A stretch of 6,876 nt of DNA, taken from contig PWGE01000023.1 in the NCBI GenBank assembly GCA_003554345.1, positions 1 to 6,876 of the forward strand, written 5' to 3'. Source of the stretch: T1SED10-198M sp003554345 [NCBI: Candidatus Sumerlaeota bacterium] (GTDB lineage: Bacteria; Sumerlaeota; T1SED10-198M). Made by a program: the position numbers and the translations under genes. Below the pieces are notes generated by a model that was not told the DNA's origin, made no database searches, and worked only from the letters and a program-made list of their open reading frames with translations. This document shows, in pieces, positions 1 through 6,876 of the stretch. How positions within the stretch are numbered: position 1 is the first letter of the stretch; the number at the start of each line of letters is the position of its first letter.

Positions 1-1298
1 ACACCCATCAAAGGACCTACTGTCTCCCGCATAATTTTCACATCTTCCAGCTTAGCACCGCCCGGACCAAAACCGGTAGAAGTTTTGACAAAATCGGCTC
101 CTGCTTTTTTTGCCAGCTCAGAAGCTTTTCTTATCTGTTCTTTGTTCAACAGAGCTGTTTCCAGGATAACCTTCAAAACCTTTCCCTGAGTTGCTTCTCT
201 TACCGCCTGAATATCATCTTCTACCAGCCGGTAATTGCCTGATTTAAGAGCTCCTACATTCAATACCATATCAATTTCATCAGCACCATTAGCAATAGCG
301 TCCCGCGCCTCTATAGCCTTTACTGTTGGTGTGGTAGCTCCCAGAGGAAAGCCCACCACCGTAGTCACTCCTACCTGAGTACCCCTCAGAAATTGCCTGG
401 CTATCTTCACATTGGAAGGATTGACGCAAACAGTAGCAAAATCGTAGCGCCTGGCTTCATCACATAATTTTTTCACGTCTTCTACGGTAGAATCAGGATG
501 GAGCAGGGTATGGTCTATCAATCCTGCCAGGTCAGAAGAAACTTTCCCGTCCGTCTGCTTGGAAGCTATCCTATCTGCTCCGGCATCAACGATATTTCTC
601 ACCGCCTTTTCCCTGTGAACCACACAAAGGCCGCATTCCACGCAACACTCAACATCACCATTGCAGGGGGCTGAAGAAGGCGGGGCAGATGGTCCCACAT
701 CCTGAACCATGACATTACCTCCCGTACGTTCCAGCGAAAAAAGTCGCTTTCCTTCCCTGGCTAAACTCTTTGCCGATACTACCCGGGCTCCAAGACTCGA
801 TATCGTATTCAAAATTTCATGAACCTTTTTTCTGTAAAAAGAAGTCACCGGTGGCTCAGGCGCACCACAGCATATCACAGCATCCTTTGCCATGAGAATT
901 CTCTTTTCCTGGCGAAACGCCAGAAGAATACAATGCGTGGCAGCATTATCAGCAATCATCCCGGCAATTTTTGCTGCTCCGTTCAAAGTGAGCACCGGTA
1001 CCATCAGTCCATCCACAGCATTCAAAATTTCCCTGTTCCACAATTCATACTCGCTCACAATACGTTTAACACCTGCAGACAGTACTTGTTCTTTTCCGAT
1101 AAGACGTTCAGCAGCAGGTGTCAGGTAAGCAGAAAAAACAGCCCCTTCGCCGGCCAACTGAGACACTGCTTGTAATGATGTTTCCACTTCTCTGTCGCCG
1201 CCCATGAATATAAGCAGTATTTCGGGATTTTTCTTCTGTTTTTCCTGGAGTTTTTGCATGGTTTGACTGGTAATTTTTTGTATAAAACTTTCTTCCAC
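1..1298 (-). CDS. deoC: Flavoprotein-like domain / Cys cluster / deoxyribose-phosphate aldolase (DeoC) fusion, 3' end cut by window edge
   Basis: One uninterrupted frame of 432 codons runs from GTG at 1298 past the left edge. The C-terminal part, from about residue 256, is class I DeoC (2-deoxyribose 5-phosphate to acetaldehyde plus glyceraldehyde 3-phosphate). It shows LIDHTLLHPD (260-269), DEIDMVLNVGA with the conserved Asp at 343, and DFVKTSTGFGPGG with the Schiff-base Lys at 405. The second active-site Lys region lies outside the window. Residues 1-24 form a short amphipathic helix (FIQKITSQTMQKLQ) like a BMC encapsulation peptide. Residues 25-185 look like a Rossmann-type flavoprotein domain, with ILLIFMGGD near 27-35 and VPVLTLNGAAKIAGMIADN at 100-118. 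A Pro/Ser linker (about 203-211) leads to a cysteine cluster (C212, C218, C219, C222, C225). The GTG start has AGGAG 9 nt upstream and is 13 nt after the preceding BMC-P stop. DeoC is certain; the flavoprotein assignment is from pattern memory and less sure. Confidence 0.9.
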   Translation of the reverse strand, partial: MEESFIQKITSQTMQKLQEKQKKNPEILLIFMGGDREVETSLQAVSQLAGEGAVFSAYLTPAAERLIGKEQVLSAGVKRIVSEYELWNREILNAVDGLMVPVLTLNGAAKIAGMIADNAATHCILLAFRQEKRILMAKDAVICCGAPEPPVTSFYRKKVHEILNTISSLGARVVSAKSLAREGKRLFSLERTGGNVMVQDVGPSAPPSSAPCNGDVECCVECGLCVVHREKAVRNIVDAGADRIASKQTDGKVSSDLAGLIDHTLLHPDSTVEDVKKLCDEARRYDFATVCVNPSNVKIARQFLRGTQVGVTTVVGFPLGATTPTVKAIEARDAIANGADEIDMVLNVGALKSGNYRLVEDDIQAVREATQGKVLKVILETALLNKEQIRKASELAKKAGADFVKTSTGFGPGGAKLEDVKIMRETVGPLMG

Positions 1299-1307
1299 GG
1301 CTCACAT

Positions 1308-1312
1308 CTCCT
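1308..1312 (-). promoter_or_regulatory. Ribosome binding site fixing the GTG start of the deoC fusion
   Basis: AGGAG sits 9 nt before GTG at 1298. It shares bases with the TAA stop of the upstream BMC-P gene (TAAGGAG), so the two genes are likely translationally coupled. This supports placing the flavoprotein-like domain and DeoC in one polypeptide that starts here. Confidence 0.7.
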
Positions 1313-1608
1313 TAGTGAAATTTTTTACGGCGATTTTTACGGTATACACTATCTATCACGCCGCTGATTATTGTTCTCGTCGGTCCTTCCCTGTATCCCA
1401 GTATTTTACGACAGGCATTTCCCTCATCAATGATGAGGACAATATCTCCTATTCCGGCTCCAATATGCACATCAAGAGCCATCTGGATATCTCCACACGG
1501 TGCCAGGTTCATCTCATGTACAGGGCGAACCAACATCAACTTCTTCCCTTCCAGGGAGGAATGTTTAGTGGTTGCCCACACATTGCCCACTACTTTTGCT
1601 ATAAACAC
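1312..1608 (-). CDS. BMC-P pentameric shell vertex protein (EutN/CcmL family), copy 1
   Basis: This 98-aa protein has the EutN/CcmL fold signature: MFIAKVVGNVWATTKHSSLEGKKLM at the N-terminus and the pore-region motif DVHIGAGIGDIVLI near 50-63. Family members form pentamers that cap the vertices of the icosahedral shell. Compared with the usual D-x-VGAG-x-GE, this copy has His for Val and Asp for Glu. It ends in a very basic tail (YRKNRRKKFH) that the other two copies lack. The start is GTG: an in-frame TGA lies only 15 nt upstream and a perfect AAGGAGGG is 8 nt away, so no other start fits. It lies 60 nt after copy 2 and 13 nt before the deoC fusion. Family assignment is firm; any special role of the tail is unknown. 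Confidence 0.93.
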   Translation of the reverse strand: MFIAKVVGNVWATTKHSSLEGKKLMLVRPVHEMNLAPCGDIQMALDVHIGAGIGDIVLIIDEGNACRKILGYREGPTRTIISGVIDSVYRKNRRKKFH

Positions 1609-1668: not shown

Positions 1669-1974
1669 TTATTCCTTTATCGTTAACCCATCAATAATAC
1701 CAACCACTGCATTATGGCAAATAGGATTATCAGGAAAAGCCTGGCAGGCTTCGCGAGAACTCACATAAAAAACATATTCACCGGCTCCTGCTCCCACAGC
1801 ATCCAGCGCCACTACAGATTGTTGTTCAGGAGGTGTGTTATCCTTTCCATTTTCCTGAAAAATACGGTCAACTTCTTCCCATTTGAGGGGTTTCAGCATA
1901 AGTATTTTCTTTCCTTCAACACTGGAATGTTTTTGCGTGGCAACCACGCGTCCTATTACTCTAGCAGCCTTCAT
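1669..1974 (-). CDS. BMC-P pentameric shell vertex protein (EutN/CcmL family), copy 2
   Basis: This 101-aa EutN/CcmL-family vertex protein begins MKAARVIGRVVATQKHSSVE and carries the canonical core motif VALDAVGAGAGEYVF. Between the N-terminal strand pair and this motif it has a longer loop rich in charged and polar residues (around EVDRIFQENGKDNTPPEQQ) than the other two copies. The fold makes small beta-barrel pentamers that close the shell corners. The ATG at 1974 has GGGAG about 9 nt upstream and follows the rpiB stop by 36 nt. It stands in tandem with copy 1 but the two differ clearly in sequence, so this is an old duplication rather than a recent one. No residues suggest an enzymatic role. 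Confidence 0.93.
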   Translation of the reverse strand: MKAARVIGRVVATQKHSSVEGKKILMLKPLKWEEVDRIFQENGKDNTPPEQQSVVALDAVGAGAGEYVFYVSSREACQAFPDNPICHNAVVGIIDGLTIKE

Positions 1975-2010: not shown

Positions 2011-2460
2011 TCATTTGAAATACCGGTTTTCAATTTCCTTCATCTTATCCAGTCTTCGTTGATGACGTCCCCCTCCATAAGGAGTATCGAGCCACTTTTT
2101 GACAATTTCATATGCCACCAGTTCGCCTATCATTTTCCCGCCGAGACATAAAATGTTAGCATCATCATGTTCTGAAGCAAAGGCACCGGTCAATGTATTG
2201 TAGGCGGTAACCGCTCTGATCCCCTTCACTTTATTCGCCGTCAGACAGACGCCGGCACCGGTTCCATCGAGGAGAAGACCCTTTTTATACTCTCCTCCAG
2301 CGACAGCTTCTCCCACAAGAAGGGCATAATCAGGATAATCACAGGATTCTCTGGAATAAGTGCCAAAGTCAATAACATTGTACCCTTCCTTCTGAAGAAA
2401 CTTTTTAATTTTTTCTTTTAAGTCCCATCCACTATGGTCCGATCCTATAACAATATCCAT
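2011..2460 (-). CDS. rpiB: RpiB/LacAB-family sugar-phosphate isomerase, variant active site
   Basis: This 149-aa protein has the RpiB fold signature throughout: MDIVIGSDHSGWDLKEKI, VIDFGTYS, DYPDYA, DGTGAGVCLTANKVKGIRA, SEHDDANILCLGG and GGGRHQRR. RpiB interconverts ribose 5-phosphate and ribulose 5-phosphate; relatives act on allose or galactose phosphates. The ring-opening His (H98, in SEHDDAN) is kept. The catalytic-base Cys of E. coli- and Thermotoga-type RpiB (CGTG) is replaced by Asp65 (DGTG), and a Cys appears seven residues later at 72. Mechanism or substrate may therefore differ. The ATG at 2460 is preferred because it gives the usual family N-terminus; a GTG at 2472 in the same frame overlaps the Shine-Dalgarno. 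The ATG follows the BMC-T stop by one base, indicating translational coupling. In this locus it probably supplies or interconverts the sugar phosphate used with DeoC. Confidence 0.9.
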   Translation of the reverse strand: MDIVIGSDHSGWDLKEKIKKFLQKEGYNVIDFGTYSRESCDYPDYALLVGEAVAGGEYKKGLLLDGTGAGVCLTANKVKGIRAVTAYNTLTGAFASEHDDANILCLGGKMIGELVAYEIVKKWLDTPYGGGRHQRRLDKMKEIENRYFK

Positions 2461-2461
2461 A

Positions 2462-3010
2462 TTACAACACACTCCTTCGTAAGTCCTTATGAGGTTGTGG
2501 TATTACAACCCGGCGGATAATAATACCCTCTTCTTTCAAAGCGTTACAGCCATCATTCACCGCAGTTCGAACCGCTCCTACTTCCCCGGTCAGCGTAACA
2601 AAGGCTTTTCCTCCCAGGGCATTGGCAAGGCGTACTTCAATCAACTGAACATGTGCCCCTTTGACTGCAGCATCAGCTGCTATGATACTGGAAGCAGCAG
2701 AAAAGGTTTCTATTATACCCAGCGCATCCAGCTCTGTCACATTCGACATATCCCGAATGGCAGGTACCAGTTGAGGGTCGATATTCGGTATAAGTAATTT
2801 ATCAATAAGGGCATCTTTTGAGAGAGCTAAACCCTGCTTCATTGATGCTTCCACATCTGCCACGGTTCCGGTAATCAATACAATGAATTTACCGGGACAG
2901 ACAGAATGCGCCTCCACAAGTTCACTTTCAGAGGCTTTCAACAGAGCATCCGTCACTTCAAAACCTTTAGCAATACTGTTTAATTCTATCAAACCTATGG
3001 CACGTTGCAT
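2462..3010 (-). CDS. pduT: BMC-T trimeric shell protein, PduT-like, with Fe-S ligand Cys
   Basis: This 182-aa protein has two tandem BMC domains (about 1-90 and 93-182). Each begins with the family motif, AIGLIELNSIAKGFEVTDAL and ALGIIETFSAASSIIAADA, and the second ends VIPQPHKDLRR. It aligns closely with PduT as I recall it, including SVCPGKF with Cys at residue 38. That is the position known in PduT to bind a [4Fe-4S] cluster at the centre of the trimer. The protein is thus expected to be a flat shell facet with a redox centre at its pore. It starts 2 nt after the stop of pduS, its known electron-transfer partner in Pdu compartments, and is followed one base later by rpiB. Family and cluster-binding residue are clear; actual cluster occupancy is inferred. 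Confidence 0.93.
   Translation of the reverse strand: MQRAIGLIELNSIAKGFEVTDALLKASESELVEAHSVCPGKFIVLITGTVADVEASMKQGLALSKDALIDKLLIPNIDPQLVPAIRDMSNVTELDALGIIETFSAASSIIAADAAVKGAHVQLIEVRLANALGGKAFVTLTGEVGAVRTAVNDGCNALKEEGIIIRRVVIPQPHKDLRRSVL
2472..2477 (-). promoter_or_regulatory. Ribosome binding site deciding the rpiB start
   Basis: AAGGAG ends 11 nt before ATG 2460. The alternative in-frame GTG (2472-2470) uses the last G of this site and would add four residues (VCCN) not typical of RpiB, although an AAGGA further upstream could serve it. The site lies within the last codons of the BMC-T gene. Confidence 0.55.
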
Positions 3011-3012
3011 AC

Positions 3013-4341
3013 TTATTGAACCTTTCCGGTAATTTCCACCCTCTCCCGGCTCACATGAGTGACCCTCCCATCAATACTGGCATGAACCATCATGCCCAGG
3101 GCATCTGGCGGAATTTCACCAATAACATCTCCCCTCACAAGAGTATCACCCTTTTTCACCACCGGCAGGGCACTTTTTCCTATTTTAGGGGTAAGGTCAA
3201 TAACCACCTTATCTGTTTCTATCTTTTTTATTTCATATGTCTGACGTTCATAATCATCTACACCAATACGAATAGCCAGGCGTTCGGCATTTACCTTGCG
3301 GAATTCCTTTTCAGAATGAGGTTCCAGAACTTCCCGGCAGTGGGTATTTTTCACTCCATCAACCCGCAATTTCTCGCCAACCTCCTGCAAAAGCCGCCGG
3401 GGAGATAAGTCCAGGGGACAGGCATACATATCGCAAAGGCCGCACTCAGAACAAAGGTAAGCAGGAGTATACTCAAAGGCATTCTCCGGAGCAATAAAAA
3501 GCTGACGCATAACTTTGTGAGGTTCCAGGGCATGTCCCAGGAGGTTGCGAGGACACACAATGGTACAATCAAAGCACTGATCACAGGTGGATTTACCCCG
3601 TCGTTTATGGGCACGTAGAGACATTGTCTGTTTTCCTGTCAGAGGGTGGTCGGGCGGCAATACCAGCAGTCCCCCGCAGGTTTTGTCTATCCGGTAATTC
3701 TTTTCAACCGACTCTCCCATCATGGGACCTCCTGCCAGGATGATAAAATCATCTGAAAGAGGTTTTGCGATATCAACCAGTTCCCCCGCTGATATTCCCA
3801 ATGGGACCTCTGCCAGATAAGGCTCTGCCAGCTCACCCGCTACCGTCACCCAGCGGGTGGTAACAGGGAGACTTTTTTCAACGGCTAATGTTATATTCAA
3901 GAGAGTGTTCACATTAATGACCACGCATCCCACATCAATAGGGAGGCCACTTTCCGGTATAATTCTACCGGTCACATTATAAACCAGCTCAAATTCATCC
4001 CCGGCAGGATAATAATTCTGCAGAAACCACAGCTCAATATCACTGCTTTCTCCCACAGCTTTTTTGAATGTTTCCACTGCCTCAGTATATTTTTCTTTCA
4101 CACCGATATAAGCATTTCGTGCGCCGGTCACATATTTCACATAGCGCAATCCCCGGACTATTTCAGCAGCGCAGTTCTGCATAAGATGCCTTTCAGTGGA
4201 AAGTACGGGTTCACATTCAGCCCCGTTAGCAATAACCGTATCCACCTGACAGTCCATCTTTTTATAGGCAGGGAACCCCCCTCCACCGGCACCTACAATG
4301 CCCGCTTCTTTAACCTGTTTAATAATTGTATCTCTTTGCAT
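3013..4341 (-). CDS. pduS: PduS-like / RnfC-type flavin and Fe-S electron-transfer protein
   Basis: This 442-aa protein (from ATG 4341) belongs to the PduS/RnfC family. In order it has a glycine-rich nucleotide/flavin-binding loop GAGGGGFPAYKK (17-28), an NGAECEP segment of the complex-I 51-kDa type (39-45), and two ferredoxin-like cluster motifs. These are CDQCFDCTIVCP (C253, C256, C259, C263) and CSECGLCDMYACP (C297, C300, C303, C308). A barrel-sandwich/SLBB-like C-terminus follows (KGDTLVRGDVIGEIPPD onward). PduS is known to carry flavin and two [4Fe-4S] clusters and to work with PduT. Here it likely oxidises NADH made by the aldehyde dehydrogenase and passes electrons to the shell. A GTG at 4347 abuts the upstream TAG, but the AGGTGA site suits ATG 4341 better. 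No transmembrane segment is evident, so it is not membrane-anchored as in the Rnf complex. Confidence 0.93.
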   Translation of the reverse strand: MQRDTIIKQVKEAGIVGAGGGGFPAYKKMDCQVDTVIANGAECEPVLSTERHLMQNCAAEIVRGLRYVKYVTGARNAYIGVKEKYTEAVETFKKAVGESSDIELWFLQNYYPAGDEFELVYNVTGRIIPESGLPIDVGCVVINVNTLLNITLAVEKSLPVTTRWVTVAGELAEPYLAEVPLGISAGELVDIAKPLSDDFIILAGGPMMGESVEKNYRIDKTCGGLLVLPPDHPLTGKQTMSLRAHKRRGKSTCDQCFDCTIVCPRNLLGHALEPHKVMRQLFIAPENAFEYTPAYLCSECGLCDMYACPLDLSPRRLLQEVGEKLRVDGVKNTHCREVLEPHSEKEFRKVNAERLAIRIGVDDYERQTYEIKKIETDKVVIDLTPKIGKSALPVVKKGDTLVRGDVIGEIPPDALGMMVHASIDGRVTHVSRERVEITGKVQ

Positions 4342-4343
4342 TT

Positions 4344-4349
4344 TCACCT
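4344..4349 (-). promoter_or_regulatory. Ribosome binding site deciding the pduS start
   Basis: AGGTGA, the 3' half of the full AGGAGGTGA consensus, overlaps the TAG stop of the aldehyde dehydrogenase gene and precedes ATG 4341 by 2 nt. The alternative GTG at 4347 lies inside this site and has no Shine-Dalgarno of its own. The overlap indicates translational coupling. Confidence 0.55.
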
Positions 4350-5778
4350 ATACAATTCGAAAATAATCTACAAGAACACAGCGCAGGGGACGGGTAAAAT
4401 TCTTTGCACTTACCAGACCATCACCGGTAGGTGTGGCAATGGAAAGGGTGGCATAGCCTTCTCCCATTCCCAACCCCATATAGGAAGGACCATTTTTTAC
4501 AAAGATAGAACACGCTATTTTTTTCGCCATTTCGGTTAGACTCTGCACATTCAATGAATGCATGATAGCCGTATGTCCATTCCCACCTTCCATTTCCACT
4601 GCCAGATCAATTGTCTCACTGATACCTCCCGTTATAGTAAAAGGAAGAACAGGCATTAATTGTTCTGTCCAGAGAAAATCATTCTCTTTACCCACAACAC
4701 CCCATAAAATTCTCACTTCCTCACCCACATCAATACCGAGGGCAGCGGCTATTTGACGAGCTCCCTTACCAATAAAGTCCTTATTAACCACTGGATGAGC
4801 TCCCCCTTTTCCACTTTTCTCAATAGCCATCGAAGAGAGTTTTTCCATCCGGGCTTCGGATAATTCATACGCCCGGGGATCAGCACGAAGACATGGCAAA
4901 ATACTCTGCTCACATCCTTCTGCCAGCAGCACTTCTTTTTCAGCAGTACATAACACATTATTATCAAAAGAGGCACCTTTAATAATAGAATCAACTGTTT
5001 TTCGTGGTTCTACCGTATTATCAACCACCACCGGCGGATTACCCGGACCCGCAGCAATTATTTTTTTGGGGGTTTTCATGGCTTTTTCAACAACAGCAGG
5101 ACCTCCTGTTACCAGCAAAAGCCGGATATCAGGATGGGAAAAGAGAATTTCAGCCCCTTCCAGGGTGGGTTCCTTCATTGCCGTTATGATCCCCGACGGA
5201 GCCCCTGCAGACTCAGCAGCCTGACTGAGGAGCCTCATCGTTTTGAGAGAAACCTCTTTTGCACCAGGATGAGGGGCAAAAACCACGGTATTGCCACCTG
5301 CCAGTATACTGATGGCATTATTTATTATGGTAGAAGAAGGGTTTGTGGAAGGTGTCACAGCACCTATGACCCCAAAGGGGGCTCTTTCCACAAGAGTTAA
5401 ACCGCGATCCCCGGTATACGTTCGGGGTTTCAGGTCTTCAATCCCGGGAGTTTTATCTGCAGCAAGCTGATTTTTCAGGGTTTTATCTTCCCACCGTCCC
5501 ATACCTGTTTCCTGAGCAGCCTGCTTACCCAGATTTTCCGCCTCTTTTCGGGACACTTCTCTCATCGCTTCAATAATGTGAGCTCTATTTTCCAGGCTTA
5601 AGGCAACAAATTTCTTCTGGGCTTTTCGGGCTGCAGCAATAGCTCCTTCCATAGTGGGGAAAAGAACTTCTTCCCCAGAGCCATCTGGCCTGGGTGAGGC
5701 AGGTATACCCTCTTCTGTCTCCAGACGGGCAACAACCTCGCGTACTATTCTGGCAACTTCTTCCCTTTTAATATCCAT
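4348..5778 (-). CDS. CoA-acylating aldehyde dehydrogenase (PduP/EutE family) with N-terminal encapsulation peptide
   Basis: This 476-aa protein oxidises an aldehyde with NAD+ and CoA to acyl-CoA; with DeoC in the operon, acetaldehyde to acetyl-CoA is the likely reaction. Family marks are ERAPFGVIGAVTPSTNPSST (131-150), LLLVTGGPAVV (220-230), GPGNPPVVVD (244-253) and the catalytic thiol Cys277 in SFDNNVLCTAEKEV. The first 24 residues (MDIKREEVARIVREVVARLE and on) form an amphipathic helix with Ile, Val and Leu on one face. A Pro/Gly/Ser linker follows (IPASPRPDGSGEE). This is the classic layout of a peptide that targets cargo into the BMC lumen. ATG 5778 lies 17 nt after the BMC-P stop with GAAGG close upstream. 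The stop codon touches the pduS start region. PduP and EutE cannot be told apart by eye, so no symbol is given. Confidence 0.95.
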   Translation of the reverse strand: MDIKREEVARIVREVVARLETEEGIPASPRPDGSGEEVLFPTMEGAIAAARKAQKKFVALSLENRAHIIEAMREVSRKEAENLGKQAAQETGMGRWEDKTLKNQLAADKTPGIEDLKPRTYTGDRGLTLVERAPFGVIGAVTPSTNPSSTIINNAISILAGGNTVVFAPHPGAKEVSLKTMRLLSQAAESAGAPSGIITAMKEPTLEGAEILFSHPDIRLLLVTGGPAVVEKAMKTPKKIIAAGPGNPPVVVDNTVEPRKTVDSIIKGASFDNNVLCTAEKEVLLAEGCEQSILPCLRADPRAYELSEARMEKLSSMAIEKSGKGGAHPVVNKDFIGKGARQIAAALGIDVGEEVRILWGVVGKENDFLWTEQLMPVLPFTITGGISETIDLAVEMEGGNGHTAIMHSLNVQSLTEMAKKIACSIFVKNGPSYMGLGMGEGYATLSIATPTGDGLVSAKNFTRPLRCVLVDYFRIV

Positions 5779-5795: not shown

Positions 5796-6089
5796 TTATG
5801 AATTCTTTTCAAAGATTATGGAGCCATTCTTTTCCACATAATCCACAATACCCATAATGGTGCAGTCAACAGGACGGTCCTGGGTAATCTCCGTCATTCG
5901 TGAGGAAGAGCCCGAAACAATAAGTACAAGCTCCCCTTCCCCTGCACCAACGGAATCAATGGCAACTAAAGAGGAACCCTGTGCTTTAAGAGAATCGTCT
6001 ACGGGTTGAACCAGGAGAAGCTTGGTTCCCGAAATTTTTTCGTCTTTCCTGGTACATACCACATTTCCCGTAACCAATGCAAATTTCAT
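5796..6089 (-). CDS. BMC-P pentameric shell vertex protein (EutN/CcmL family), copy 3
   Basis: This 97-aa EutN/CcmL-family protein begins MKFALVTGNVVCTRKDEKISGTKLLL, has the canonical VAIDSVGAGEGELVLI core, and ends with a MGIVDYVE strand. Pentamers of this family close shell vertices. It departs from copies 1 and 2 in the first loop, where their TxKHSSxEGKK becomes TRKDEKISGTK. The ATG at 6089 has GAGGGGG 4 nt upstream. It is the first gene after the 231-nt spacer, and its start overlaps by ATGA with the stop of a possible small ORF. The aldehyde dehydrogenase follows 17 nt later. It may form a separate vertex type or mixed pentamers with the others; the sequence cannot say which. Confidence 0.92.
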   Translation of the reverse strand: MKFALVTGNVVCTRKDEKISGTKLLLVQPVDDSLKAQGSSLVAIDSVGAGEGELVLIVSGSSSRMTEITQDRPVDCTIMGIVDYVEKNGSIIFEKNS

Positions 6090-6320: not shown

Positions 6321-6623
6321 TTACTTTTTTGTTTTCCCGGAAAAAAATTCAGCAGATATAGGCACCTTATCTTCGAGGTCATTATGAGGTCGAGGTATGA
6401 CATGTACAGATACCAGTTCTCCTACTCGCTGGGCAGCAGCGCTTCCTGCTTCACAGGCAGCACGACAGGCAGCCACTTCTCCCCGAACCAGTACAGTTAC
6501 ATAGCCCTGTCCGATTTTCTCATACCCTACAAGTGATACATCTGCTGCTTTGACCATAGCATCAGCAGCTTCAATCATAGCCACCAGACCTCTTGTTTCA
6601 ATCATTCCCAATGCCTGTTCCAT
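6321..6623 (-). CDS. BMC-H hexameric shell protein (PduA/PduJ/EutM type)
   Basis: This 100-aa single BMC-domain protein, close to PduA and EutM, should form the hexameric tiles that make most of the shell. It has the signature [20 protein letters not shown] (4-23), the [20 protein letters not shown] stretch (33-52) and [12 protein letters not shown] near the end. The pore loop is G38-Q39-G40, where PduA has GSG. The bulky amide should narrow or retune the metabolite pore. After the domain it has a C-terminal tail ([13 protein letters not shown]) with Lys at the end. ATG 6623 has AAGGAG 8 nt upstream (6632-6637) and lies 36 nt after the pduL stop. It is the only BMC-H gene in the window, although shells need many copies; a strong ribosome binding site and the hairpin downstream fit high expression. 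Confidence 0.95.
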
Positions 6624-6659: not shown

Positions 6660-6876
6660 TTAACTTAAAAATACTTCTGTTCCACTTTGCAGATCACAAG
6701 CGTTGGCTTCATCAGTATCAAGATGACATTCCAGTTTAAACTTTTCATCAACACGCACCACCACATCTTCAAAGACAACTGCCCGGGGAGGGCGGGTTCG
6801 GACACGTACTTTTTGGCCATCCTTTACTTTAAATCTCGTAGCATCAGCAGGAGTCATATGGATATGACGCTGTGCT
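6660..6876 (-). CDS. pduL: PduL-type phosphate acyltransferase (phosphotransacylase), 5' part cut by window edge
   Basis: The last 71 codons and stop are visible. They begin AQRHIHMTPADATRF and continue with DGQKVRVRTRPP, VFEDVVVRV and LECHLDTDEANAC, the conserved second half of PduL. PduL makes acyl phosphate (here probably acetyl phosphate) from acyl-CoA and phosphate, recycling CoA inside the compartment. The His pair in RHIHM and the His in CHLDTDE are separated as the three zinc-binding histidines are in the PduL structure (45 residues between the second and third). The active-site metal ligands of this half thus look intact. The N-terminal half, including any encapsulation peptide, is outside the window. 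The BMC-H gene follows after 36 AT-rich nt. Confidence 0.93.
   Translation of the reverse strand, partial: AQRHIHMTPADATRFKVKDGQKVRVRTRPPRAVVFEDVVVRVDEKFKLECHLDTDEANACDLQSGTEVFLS

What the first reader, a model, noticed from the sequence alone, without database searches (positions are those of the whole stretch)
1..1298. DeoC aldolase fused behind a flavoprotein-like domain
Classical DeoC is about 220-260 residues and starts near its LIDHTLL motif. Here that motif is preceded by about 255 residues in the same frame: a targeting-like helix, a Rossmann-type domain with VPVLTLNGAAKIAGMIADN (typical, as I recall, of flavoprotein/dipicolinate-synthase-B-like proteins), a Pro/Ser linker and a Cys-rich segment. 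Joining an aldolase to a possible flavin domain in a compartment that also has PduS/PduT suggests direct coupling of aldehyde release to redox chemistry, or a scaffold role. Such domains may occur as separate genes in related loci; the fusion looks unusual to me.
Basis: partly seen in the sequence, partly recalled or inferred. Interest (0 to 1): 0.75.

Follow-up and report, generated by a model that had tools for sequence, protein, structure and literature searches.

The report
Aldolase fused to organelle flavoprotein-like domain
In a bacterial protein organelle thought to digest DNA sugars, the key sugar-splitting enzyme carries an extra domain with the fold of flavin-binding proteins; the fusion is real and recurs in several lineages, but the extra domain lacks classical catalytic residues and more likely helps pack the enzyme than run redox chemistry.

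Summary
The minus-strand frame 1298..3 (GTG start, 432 residues, cut by the contig end) is helix + HFCD/PF02441-fold domain + Cys-rich linker + class I DeoC. It is not a lost stop: 6 of 77 DeoC loci that I could place in an 80-locus scan have the same architecture, in MAGs labelled Elusimicrobia, Endomicrobia, Bacillota, Thermoplasmatota, Armatimonadetes and Dependentiae. The missing C-terminus probably lies on contig C382 of the same genome.

The N-terminal domain is confidently modelled (pLDDT 85). Its best structural matches are FMN proteins (DmrB Z 18.3, CoaBC 17.8, UbiX, EpiD). Its relatives are stand-alone TIGR02536/PF02441-like proteins of BMC loci: 13 of 39 other genomes of the phylum have one, and 12 of these 13 also have a separate DeoC with an extension. 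The fusion joins two parts that are there split.

The redox reading is not established: the HFCD catalytic His and PxMN segment are missing, the PASANT-type Asn is kept in 5 of 7 fused copies, the domain diverges far faster than DeoC, and sister DeoCs lack it. I favour a core-assembly role with optional flavin (0.5). New variant of a known kind (SPU microcompartment).

The parts
3..1298 (-). Fused DeoC gene, 432 residues, C-terminus cut by the contig end
1242..1295 (-). N-terminal helix, residues 2-19, candidate encapsulation peptide
   Evidence: Helix in the AF2 model (block pLDDT 62-75); hydrophobic moment 0.25, not above shuffles; aligned with the N-terminal helix stretch of the stand-alone relatives
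735..1229 (-). HFCD/PF02441-fold (flavoprotein-like) domain, residues about 24-188
945..998 (-). PVLTLNGAAKIAGMIADN, the PASANT-equivalent motif (residues 101-118, Asn106)
624..665 (-). Cys-rich segment, residues 212-225 (C-x5-CC-x2-C-x2-C)
561..602 (-). VRNIVDAGADRIAS segment, residues 233-246, resembles DeoC's own beta8 phosphate loop
   Evidence: Sequence; relatives tested (the window itself was not, its beta8 being beyond the contig end)
3..530 (-). DeoC class I aldolase domain, residues 257-432 of about 475; Schiff-base Lys405 (role recalled from E. coli DeoC) present
1312..1608 (-). EutN/CcmL pentamer shell protein
1669..1974 (-). EutN/CcmL pentamer shell protein
2011..2472 (-). RpiB sugar-phosphate isomerase
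2462..3010 (-). PduT-like tandem BMC shell protein
   Evidence: TIGR02526 133.6 bits, under its cut-off of 250.3
3013..4347 (-). PduS/RnfC-like flavin and Fe-S oxidoreductase
4348..5778 (-). CoA-acylating aldehyde dehydrogenase (EutE/PduP type)
5796..6089 (-). EutN/CcmL pentamer shell protein
6321..6623 (-). BMC-H shell protein
6660..6876 (-). C-terminal part of a PduL-type phosphate propanoyltransferase, cut by the contig end
   Evidence: PF06130 85.5 bits, cut-off 25

Best explanation
[quoted passage not shown] In front of it sits a domain shared with the stand-alone HFCD-fold accessory proteins of BMC loci (TIGR02536/PF02441-like). I think this domain mainly organises the core: its fold normally makes trimers and larger cages (recalled; PDB titles of DmrB and UbiX say 'cubic cage' and 'dodecameric'), so fusing it to DeoC, itself oligomeric, would cross-link the aldolase into the lumen lattice while the N-terminal helix targets it to the shell. 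Flavin may still bind in some copies, but is not the shared function. Shown: architecture, predicted fold, recurrence, split relatives. Inferred: oligomerisation, core assembly, targeting.
For: Fold: DmrB Z 18.3, CoaBC Z 17.8; after the HFCD/UbiX rows (down to Z 14.5) the list falls to Z 11.2. Fused and stand-alone domains are one family: hhalign 99.7%, E 1.8e-25 over 195 columns including the helix. Fast divergence: between fused pairs the domain is 13-52% identical, DeoC 58-76% (21 pairs). The HFCD His and PxMN segment are absent from the window domain, although the CoaBC of the same genome shows both. Sister enzymes do without: DeoCs of nine Elusimicrobia and of L023 group with fused ones in a quick tree (SH-aLRT 80-93) but lack the domain. 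Of 8 stretches with a stand-alone copy, 7 have BMC-H next door and 2 also PduL. The stand-alone tail matches EutQ's N-terminus and PduM's C-terminus; PduM is an assembly protein of the Pdu compartment (recalled).
Against: No oligomer was modelled. The closest structure, DmrB, is a redox flavoprotein. Window, L007 and L008 keep the Asn of the PASANT-type motif and the T/S-x-x-A loop and reach or pass the PF02441 cut-off when the N-terminal part is scanned (L008 whole), which would be odd for a pure scaffold. PduM's main body does not clearly match the domain (2.9% probability), and the tail match is only 36%. One stand-alone gene (L108) has no BMC-H within its 20-kb stretch. Fast divergence could also mean a changing substrate or partner.
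Confidence: 0.5

Rival explanations
1. The domain binds FMN and shuttles electrons inside the compartment, for instance between PduS and the NAD(H) used by the aldehyde dehydrogenase; being fused to DeoC keeps the carrier near the source of acetaldehyde. The Cys-rich segment might hold a metal or Fe-S cluster.
For: Best structural match is DmrB with and without FMN, titled a cage for redox transfer. 12 of 21 family members match PF02441 and 4 match AfpA at E <= 0.01. PduS-like gene in the same locus. Axen et al. 2014 (PMC4207490, passages read) noted recurrent flavin-type domains, PF02441 among them, in BMC loci and named an electron shuttle as one possible role for the GRM3 flavoprotein.
Against: PASANT-type Asn kept in 5 of 7 fused and 9 of 14 stand-alone members (read by eye). 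Only 3 of 7 fused copies pass the PF02441 cut-off (window part, L007, L008); L009 and L021 stay under it, L010 and L011 have no PF02441 match at E <= 0.5. The Cys motif is absent in L021 and incomplete in L011. DeoC chemistry needs no redox cofactor.
Confidence: 0.25
2. The domain is an allosteric or ligand-binding sensor (nucleotide, CoA-type or sugar-phosphate ligand in the HFCD pocket) that tunes DeoC.
For: HFCD pocket motif partly kept; a long linker of low confidence separates the two domains.
Against: No polar residue is invariant: only M1, L28 and G170 are, in 7 fused sequences. Sister enzymes lack the domain.
Confidence: 0.12
3. The domain is a remnant of a stand-alone protein that fused long ago, without a retained function beyond not harming DeoC.
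For: Fast divergence and apparent losses.
Against: Frame kept open over about 160 residues in copies as little as 13% identical, and a well-folded model (pLDDT 85).
Confidence: 0.12
4. The fusion is an assembly error or a lost stop in this MAG.
For: The window is a 6.9-kb contig of a 454-contig MAG with 4.3% contamination.
Against: Same architecture in six other records of differently named MAGs; frame without a stop.
Confidence: 0.01

Closest known systems
SPU bacterial microcompartment loci (Axen 2014, PMC4207490; Sutter 2021, PMC8217296; passages read)
   Same: DeoC-type aldolase + RpiB + AldDH + shell genes, PduS in some; Sutter 2021 mentions an EP-like N-terminal extension on some pfam01791 enzymes of genomes with HO loci
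   Different: The passages I read mention no flavoprotein domain fused to DeoC; Axen reports another fusion, aldolase-isomerase in Marinimicrobia
TIGR02536 'eut_hyp' / PF02441 accessory proteins of BMC loci
   Same: Same domain; N-terminal helix + HFCD fold; mostly beside BMC-H
   Different: Stand-alone, about 245-310 residues, with a C-terminal EutQ/PduM-like tail; the fused copies have the linker and DeoC there instead
HFCD flavoproteins: DmrB, CoaBC/Dfp, EpiD, UbiX, AtHAL3a, dipicolinate synthase B
   Same: Fold (Z 14.5-18.3) and PASANT-like motif region
   Different: Catalytic His and PxMN segment missing in the window domain
PduM, pdu microcompartment protein
   Same: Its C-terminus matches the tail of the stand-alone relatives (E 3.8e-4, probability 36%)
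   Different: The body does not clearly match; the window protein has no such tail

Membership tests
Class I deoxyribose-phosphate aldolase (DeoC) | Family profile above curated cut-off | tested here: met
   TIGR00126 240.7 bits, cut-off 117.3; PF01791 67.9 bits, cut-off 23.8
Class I deoxyribose-phosphate aldolase (DeoC) | Active-site Lys (VKTSTG), Asp (ADEID) and second Lys (VKASGG); roles recalled from E. coli DeoC | tested here: inconclusive
   First two present at 404 and 339; the third lies beyond the contig end in the window; it is seen in L006-L011 and L021
PF02441 Flavoprotein / HFCD fold | Pfam gathering score | tested here: inconclusive
   23.9 bits for residues 1-253, 22.5 for the whole protein; cut-off 22.7
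PF02441 Flavoprotein / HFCD fold | Fold | tested here: met
   On the predicted model: Z 14.5-18.3 to HFCD/UbiX structures; 75 Foldseek matches at E <= 0.001, the 50 rows shown all HFCD/UbiX-type
HFCD Cys decarboxylases | Catalytic His before the PASANT motif (recalled) | tested here: not met
   No His at residues 80-98 of the window; present in the own-genome CoaBC as HHIDFQEWADL
HFCD Cys decarboxylases | C-terminal PxMN substrate clamp (recalled) | tested here: not met
   PF02441 match ends at profile position 103 of 162; no PxMN in residues 133-152; CoaBC has CPAMN
FMN-binding flavoprotein | Bound flavin | not testable with these tools
   Needs purified protein
TIGR02536 eut_hyp | Curated cut-off 152.6 bits | tested here: not met
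   12.1 bits, E 0.11. Of ten relatives scanned singly none reaches it, highest 49.4 bits; best E among the 21 members of A5 is 1e-17
SPU microcompartment locus | DeoC (PF01791) plus RpiB (PF02502), as in PMC8217296 | tested here: met
SPU microcompartment locus | BMC-H, BMC-T, pentamer shell genes and CoA-acylating AldDH | tested here: met
BMC encapsulation peptide | N-terminal amphipathic helix | tested here: inconclusive
   Helix 2-19 predicted; hydrophobic moment 0.25, reached by 1484 of 5000 shuffles

The most novel reading that the evidence does not exclude
The TIGR02536-type HFCD proteins are a general class of microcompartment core scaffold: they build trimers or cages that dock signature enzymes, usually as a separate subunit (with a PduM/EutQ-like tail) and here by direct fusion to the aldolase, with flavin either lost or used as a redox relay inside the core.
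Probability: 0.3. Interest if true: 0.7.

Novelty: new variant of a known kind. Interest (0 to 1): 0.5.

Why it matters
The frequent flavin-type domains in BMC loci, PF02441 among them, were pointed out in 2014 as a trend of unknown meaning (PMC4207490, passages). A natural fusion to the signature enzyme ties such a protein physically to the core and gives a single-gene handle: delete the domain, ask whether the core, the flux or the redox balance fails. It also offers a ready-made linker for co-assembly in engineered compartments.

Tried and rejected
Assembly error or lost stop: rejected by recurrence in six other records. Wrong organism in the bin: the DeoC of L006 is 84% identical over 172 tree columns, yet two other L006 proteins find at best 45% matches in the window's genome. 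Contig C382 of the same bin carries what looks like the missing DeoC end and, by eye, otherwise ordinary chromosomal genes, so lateral gain is as likely as contamination; GC (45.9% against 36.8-43.4% for seven other stretches of that genome) and tetranucleotides did not decide. PduM body as a degenerate copy of the domain: not shown. hhalign against the own CoaBC as a single sequence: uninformative. Viral contigs gave 6 loci, matched only in the DeoC part, query residues 249-457; plasmids held no match to the domain. One clade of fused DeoCs (with L006): rejected on a quick DeoC tree (p-AU 0.003), because domain-less rows nest inside; not rejected on the domain tree (p-AU 0.22, long branches). 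Full-length model of L008: linker 190-248 nearly all under pLDDT 50, so nothing can be said about domain packing or the Cys segment. Literature: no paper found on a flavoprotein-DeoC fusion in searches of the held library (listings; passages of three papers read); supplements were not open to me. One search (PASANT motif) was empty; one search listed one paper that I did not open. A promoter/terminator scan around the gene start showed nothing I could use.

Full report
WHAT IS THERE. The window is the whole of contig C49 (6876 bp) of a 2.55-Mb, 454-contig genome. All genes of interest are on the minus strand. In transcription order: the end of a PduL-type phosphotransacylase (cut), BMC-H, EutN, CoA-acylating aldehyde dehydrogenase, PduS/RnfC-like, PduT-like BMC-T, RpiB, two EutN proteins and the fused DeoC. 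DeoC plus RpiB is the shared mark of the SPU type (PMC8217296, passages). The DeoC frame runs 1298..3 and is cut by the contig end after residue 432. The 234 bases before the BMC-H gene at the end of contig C382 begin, in one frame, VEAGASRIGASASVAIVSGKESTSTY-stop, which looks like the missing C-terminus. In L006 the order is DeoC, BMC-H, a 94-residue ORF, and C382 has BMC-H and a similar 94-residue ORF.

THE N-TERMINAL DOMAIN. PF02441 scores 23.9 bits for residues 1-253 alone and 22.5 for the whole protein, cut-off 22.7; this is marginal, so I used profiles and structure. A profile of 21 fused and stand-alone relatives finds TvaF (E 1.1e-7), EpiD (9e-6), CoaBC (1.7e-5), dipicolinate synthase B (4.6e-5), DmrB/AfpA (1.2e-4) and AtHAL3a (2.3e-4) among solved structures. 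Its top row, an AI-designed TIM barrel matched by a repeated segment, is one that I disregard. A profile of the 7 fused copies alone is weaker: TvaF 0.0054, AtHAL3a 0.019. An AlphaFold2 model of residues 1-203 from 8 sequences has pLDDT 85.2 and pTM 0.77. Foldseek gives 75 matches at E <= 0.001; the 50 rows shown are all UbiX, CoaBC, EpiD, MrsD, TvaF, AtHAL3a and DmrB-type proteins. VIA-align puts DmrB (4mwg, Z 18.3, rmsd 2.7, 159 aligned; 3wis Z 18.2) and CoaBC (6tgv, Z 17.8, rmsd 2.4, 150 aligned) first, tied within 1; the list falls from Z 14.5 to 11.2 after the HFCD set.

IS IT A WORKING FLAVIN SITE? The motif PVLTLNGAAKIAGMIADN aligns with AtHAL3a PLSANTLGKIAGGLCDN. Read by eye, the Asn is kept in 5 of 7 fused (not L009, L010) and 9 of 14 stand-alone members. 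The His that HFCD decarboxylases carry before this motif and the PxMN segment after it (both recalled) are seen in the CoaBC of the same genome but not in the window domain. Of the 21 members, 10 have a His somewhere in the stretch before the motif, at scattered columns. Of the seven fused copies three pass the PF02441 cut-off (window part, L007, L008), two stay under it (L009, L021) and two have no match at E <= 0.5 (L010, L011). Only M1, L28 and G170 are invariant in the seven fused domains. The domain therefore has the fold but not the decarboxylase chemistry; FMN binding stays open.

FUSED, SPLIT AND WITHOUT. In 77 of the 80 loci a motif rule placed the DeoC frame; 6 have a 245-278-residue extension with the domain (L007-L011, L021), L006 is cut by its contig start, 51 are plain (<25 residues) and 19 have 25-143 residues before the barrel, of which some may be false starts. 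L017, counted as plain, may be a frameshifted short form. In L007 the open frame starts after the helix, and a match that reaches further up crosses two stops. In the window's own phylum (40 genomes held) the domain profile hits 14; the window is the only fused one, and the 13 others are stand-alone frames of 268-310 aa. Of these 13, 12 also have a separate DeoC with an extension of 60 residues or more (all but G012). I examined 30 of the 33 weaker non-own PF01791 rows (not G011:C281, G004:C78, G005:C188); 29 gave a DeoC frame and none matched the domain. The 15 strongest rows I took to be other class I aldolases, unchecked. The genomes behind seven relatives were searched: six hold the fused form, G041 (L006) has no match, and three of the six (G042, G043, G044) also hold a copy in a 244-266-residue frame; G043 and G044 have one more weak match each. 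In G043 the fused and the stand-alone gene sit on the same contig 7 kb apart. Some of these MAG contigs may be mis-binned, the Thermoplasmatota one above all, so the labels are not claims about hosts.

FAMILY AND HISTORY. hhalign of the fused against the stand-alone profile: 99.7%, E 1.8e-25, 195 columns including the N-terminal helix. 14 of 21 members match TIGR02536 'eut_hyp' at E <= 0.01 and 12 match PF02441; the window itself matches TIGR02536 only at E 0.11. Of 8 stretches with a stand-alone gene, 7 have BMC-H beside it (not L108), 2 of them PduL as well. In single scans the tail matches EutQ residues 3-44 (L102, E 0.044) and PduM 114-153 (L116, E 0.081), and in a profile comparison PduM's C-terminus (E 3.8e-4, probability 36%). 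A quick tree holds 53 DeoC domains: 7 fused, L006, 30 with an extension (15 from the 80-locus scan, 15 of the phylum) and 15 plain; this is a selection, and one more row, L157, was dropped because the motif rule failed. Fused rows need 4 changes; holding them plus L006 as one clade is rejected (p-AU 0.003), since nine Elusimicrobia short forms, one plain DeoC (L024) and L023 lie among them. In the domain tree fused copies group loosely with one stand-alone row (53/84, long branches), and one clade is not rejected (p-AU 0.22). An old fusion with later losses fits both; repeated fusion is not excluded.

RATES. Between fused pairs, identity is 13-52% in the domain and 58-76% in the DeoC part (21 pairs). 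A catalytic redox partner of a conserved enzyme would be expected to be better kept; a spacer, scaffold or partner-specific dock need not be.

MECHANISM. Most likely (0.5) the domain helps build the enzymatic core. HFCD proteins form trimers and larger shells (recalled; the PDB titles of DmrB and UbiX say cage and dodecamer), and DeoC is itself oligomeric (tetramer: PMC8346489, passage). Such a fusion can form a lattice that the N-terminal helix would tie to the shell, as the stand-alone form may do as a separate subunit. The redox-relay reading keeps 0.25, the ligand-sensor and remnant readings 0.12 each. None of these functional steps is shown here.

NOVELTY. The held literature (searches named under Tried and rejected) describes SPU loci, EP-like extensions on some DeoC relatives, PF02441 among recurrent flavin-type domains of BMC loci, and an aldolase-isomerase fusion; in the passages I read there is no PF02441-DeoC fusion. 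I rate it a new variant of a known kind.

Noticed in passing
window 561-602 (-); L008, L009, L010, L021, L147, L153, L158 and others: The linker before the barrel carries VxxIVxAGADRIGAS, resembling DeoC's own beta8 phosphate loop (MIxAGATRIGAS). In 26 relatives tested the best linker-to-barrel match fell on beta8 in 19 by the script's rule (three more, L141-L143, at the same place by eye); 9 of the 19 were reached by at most 10 of 1000 shuffles. Relatives are not independent.
   Followed up: partly
window 624-665 (-); L006-L010, L147, L153, L158, L163: Cys-rich motif of the type C-x(n)-CxxCGxC just before that segment, in fused and in several unfused DeoCs; incomplete in L011, absent in L021. 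Possible metal site, unexplained.
   Followed up: partly
L012-L016, L018-L020, L022; three times in L007: Short motif [ST]-[AGS]-G-K-[IV]-F between the N-terminal helix and the aldolase in nine Elusimicrobia short-form DeoCs, and a variant repeated three times in the L007 linker. Among the frames of 26 loci scanned it occurs otherwise only in L017, in another frame just upstream. Perhaps a docking motif.
   Followed up: partly
L102-L109, L116; L006 1276-1560; L002 1038-1322: Tail of the stand-alone proteins (RxFxTxEDV...IxTDxARxxA) resembles EutQ's N-terminus and PduM's C-terminus; a 94-residue ORF after BMC-H in L006 and C382 has a similar end (by eye).
   Followed up: partly
L103, L106, L116, L104, L105: Stand-alone flavoprotein-like genes sit in tiny clusters with one BMC-H, sometimes PduL and PduS, with no DeoC beside them in the stretches seen: satellite-type loci.
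   Followed up: no
L173 2935-5067 (-) (contig C382): ORF with the domains of an ADP-forming acyl-CoA synthetase (ATP-grasp_5, Succ_CoA_lig, CoA_binding_2) on the contig that seems to continue the locus; could make ATP from the acetyl-CoA.
   Followed up: partly
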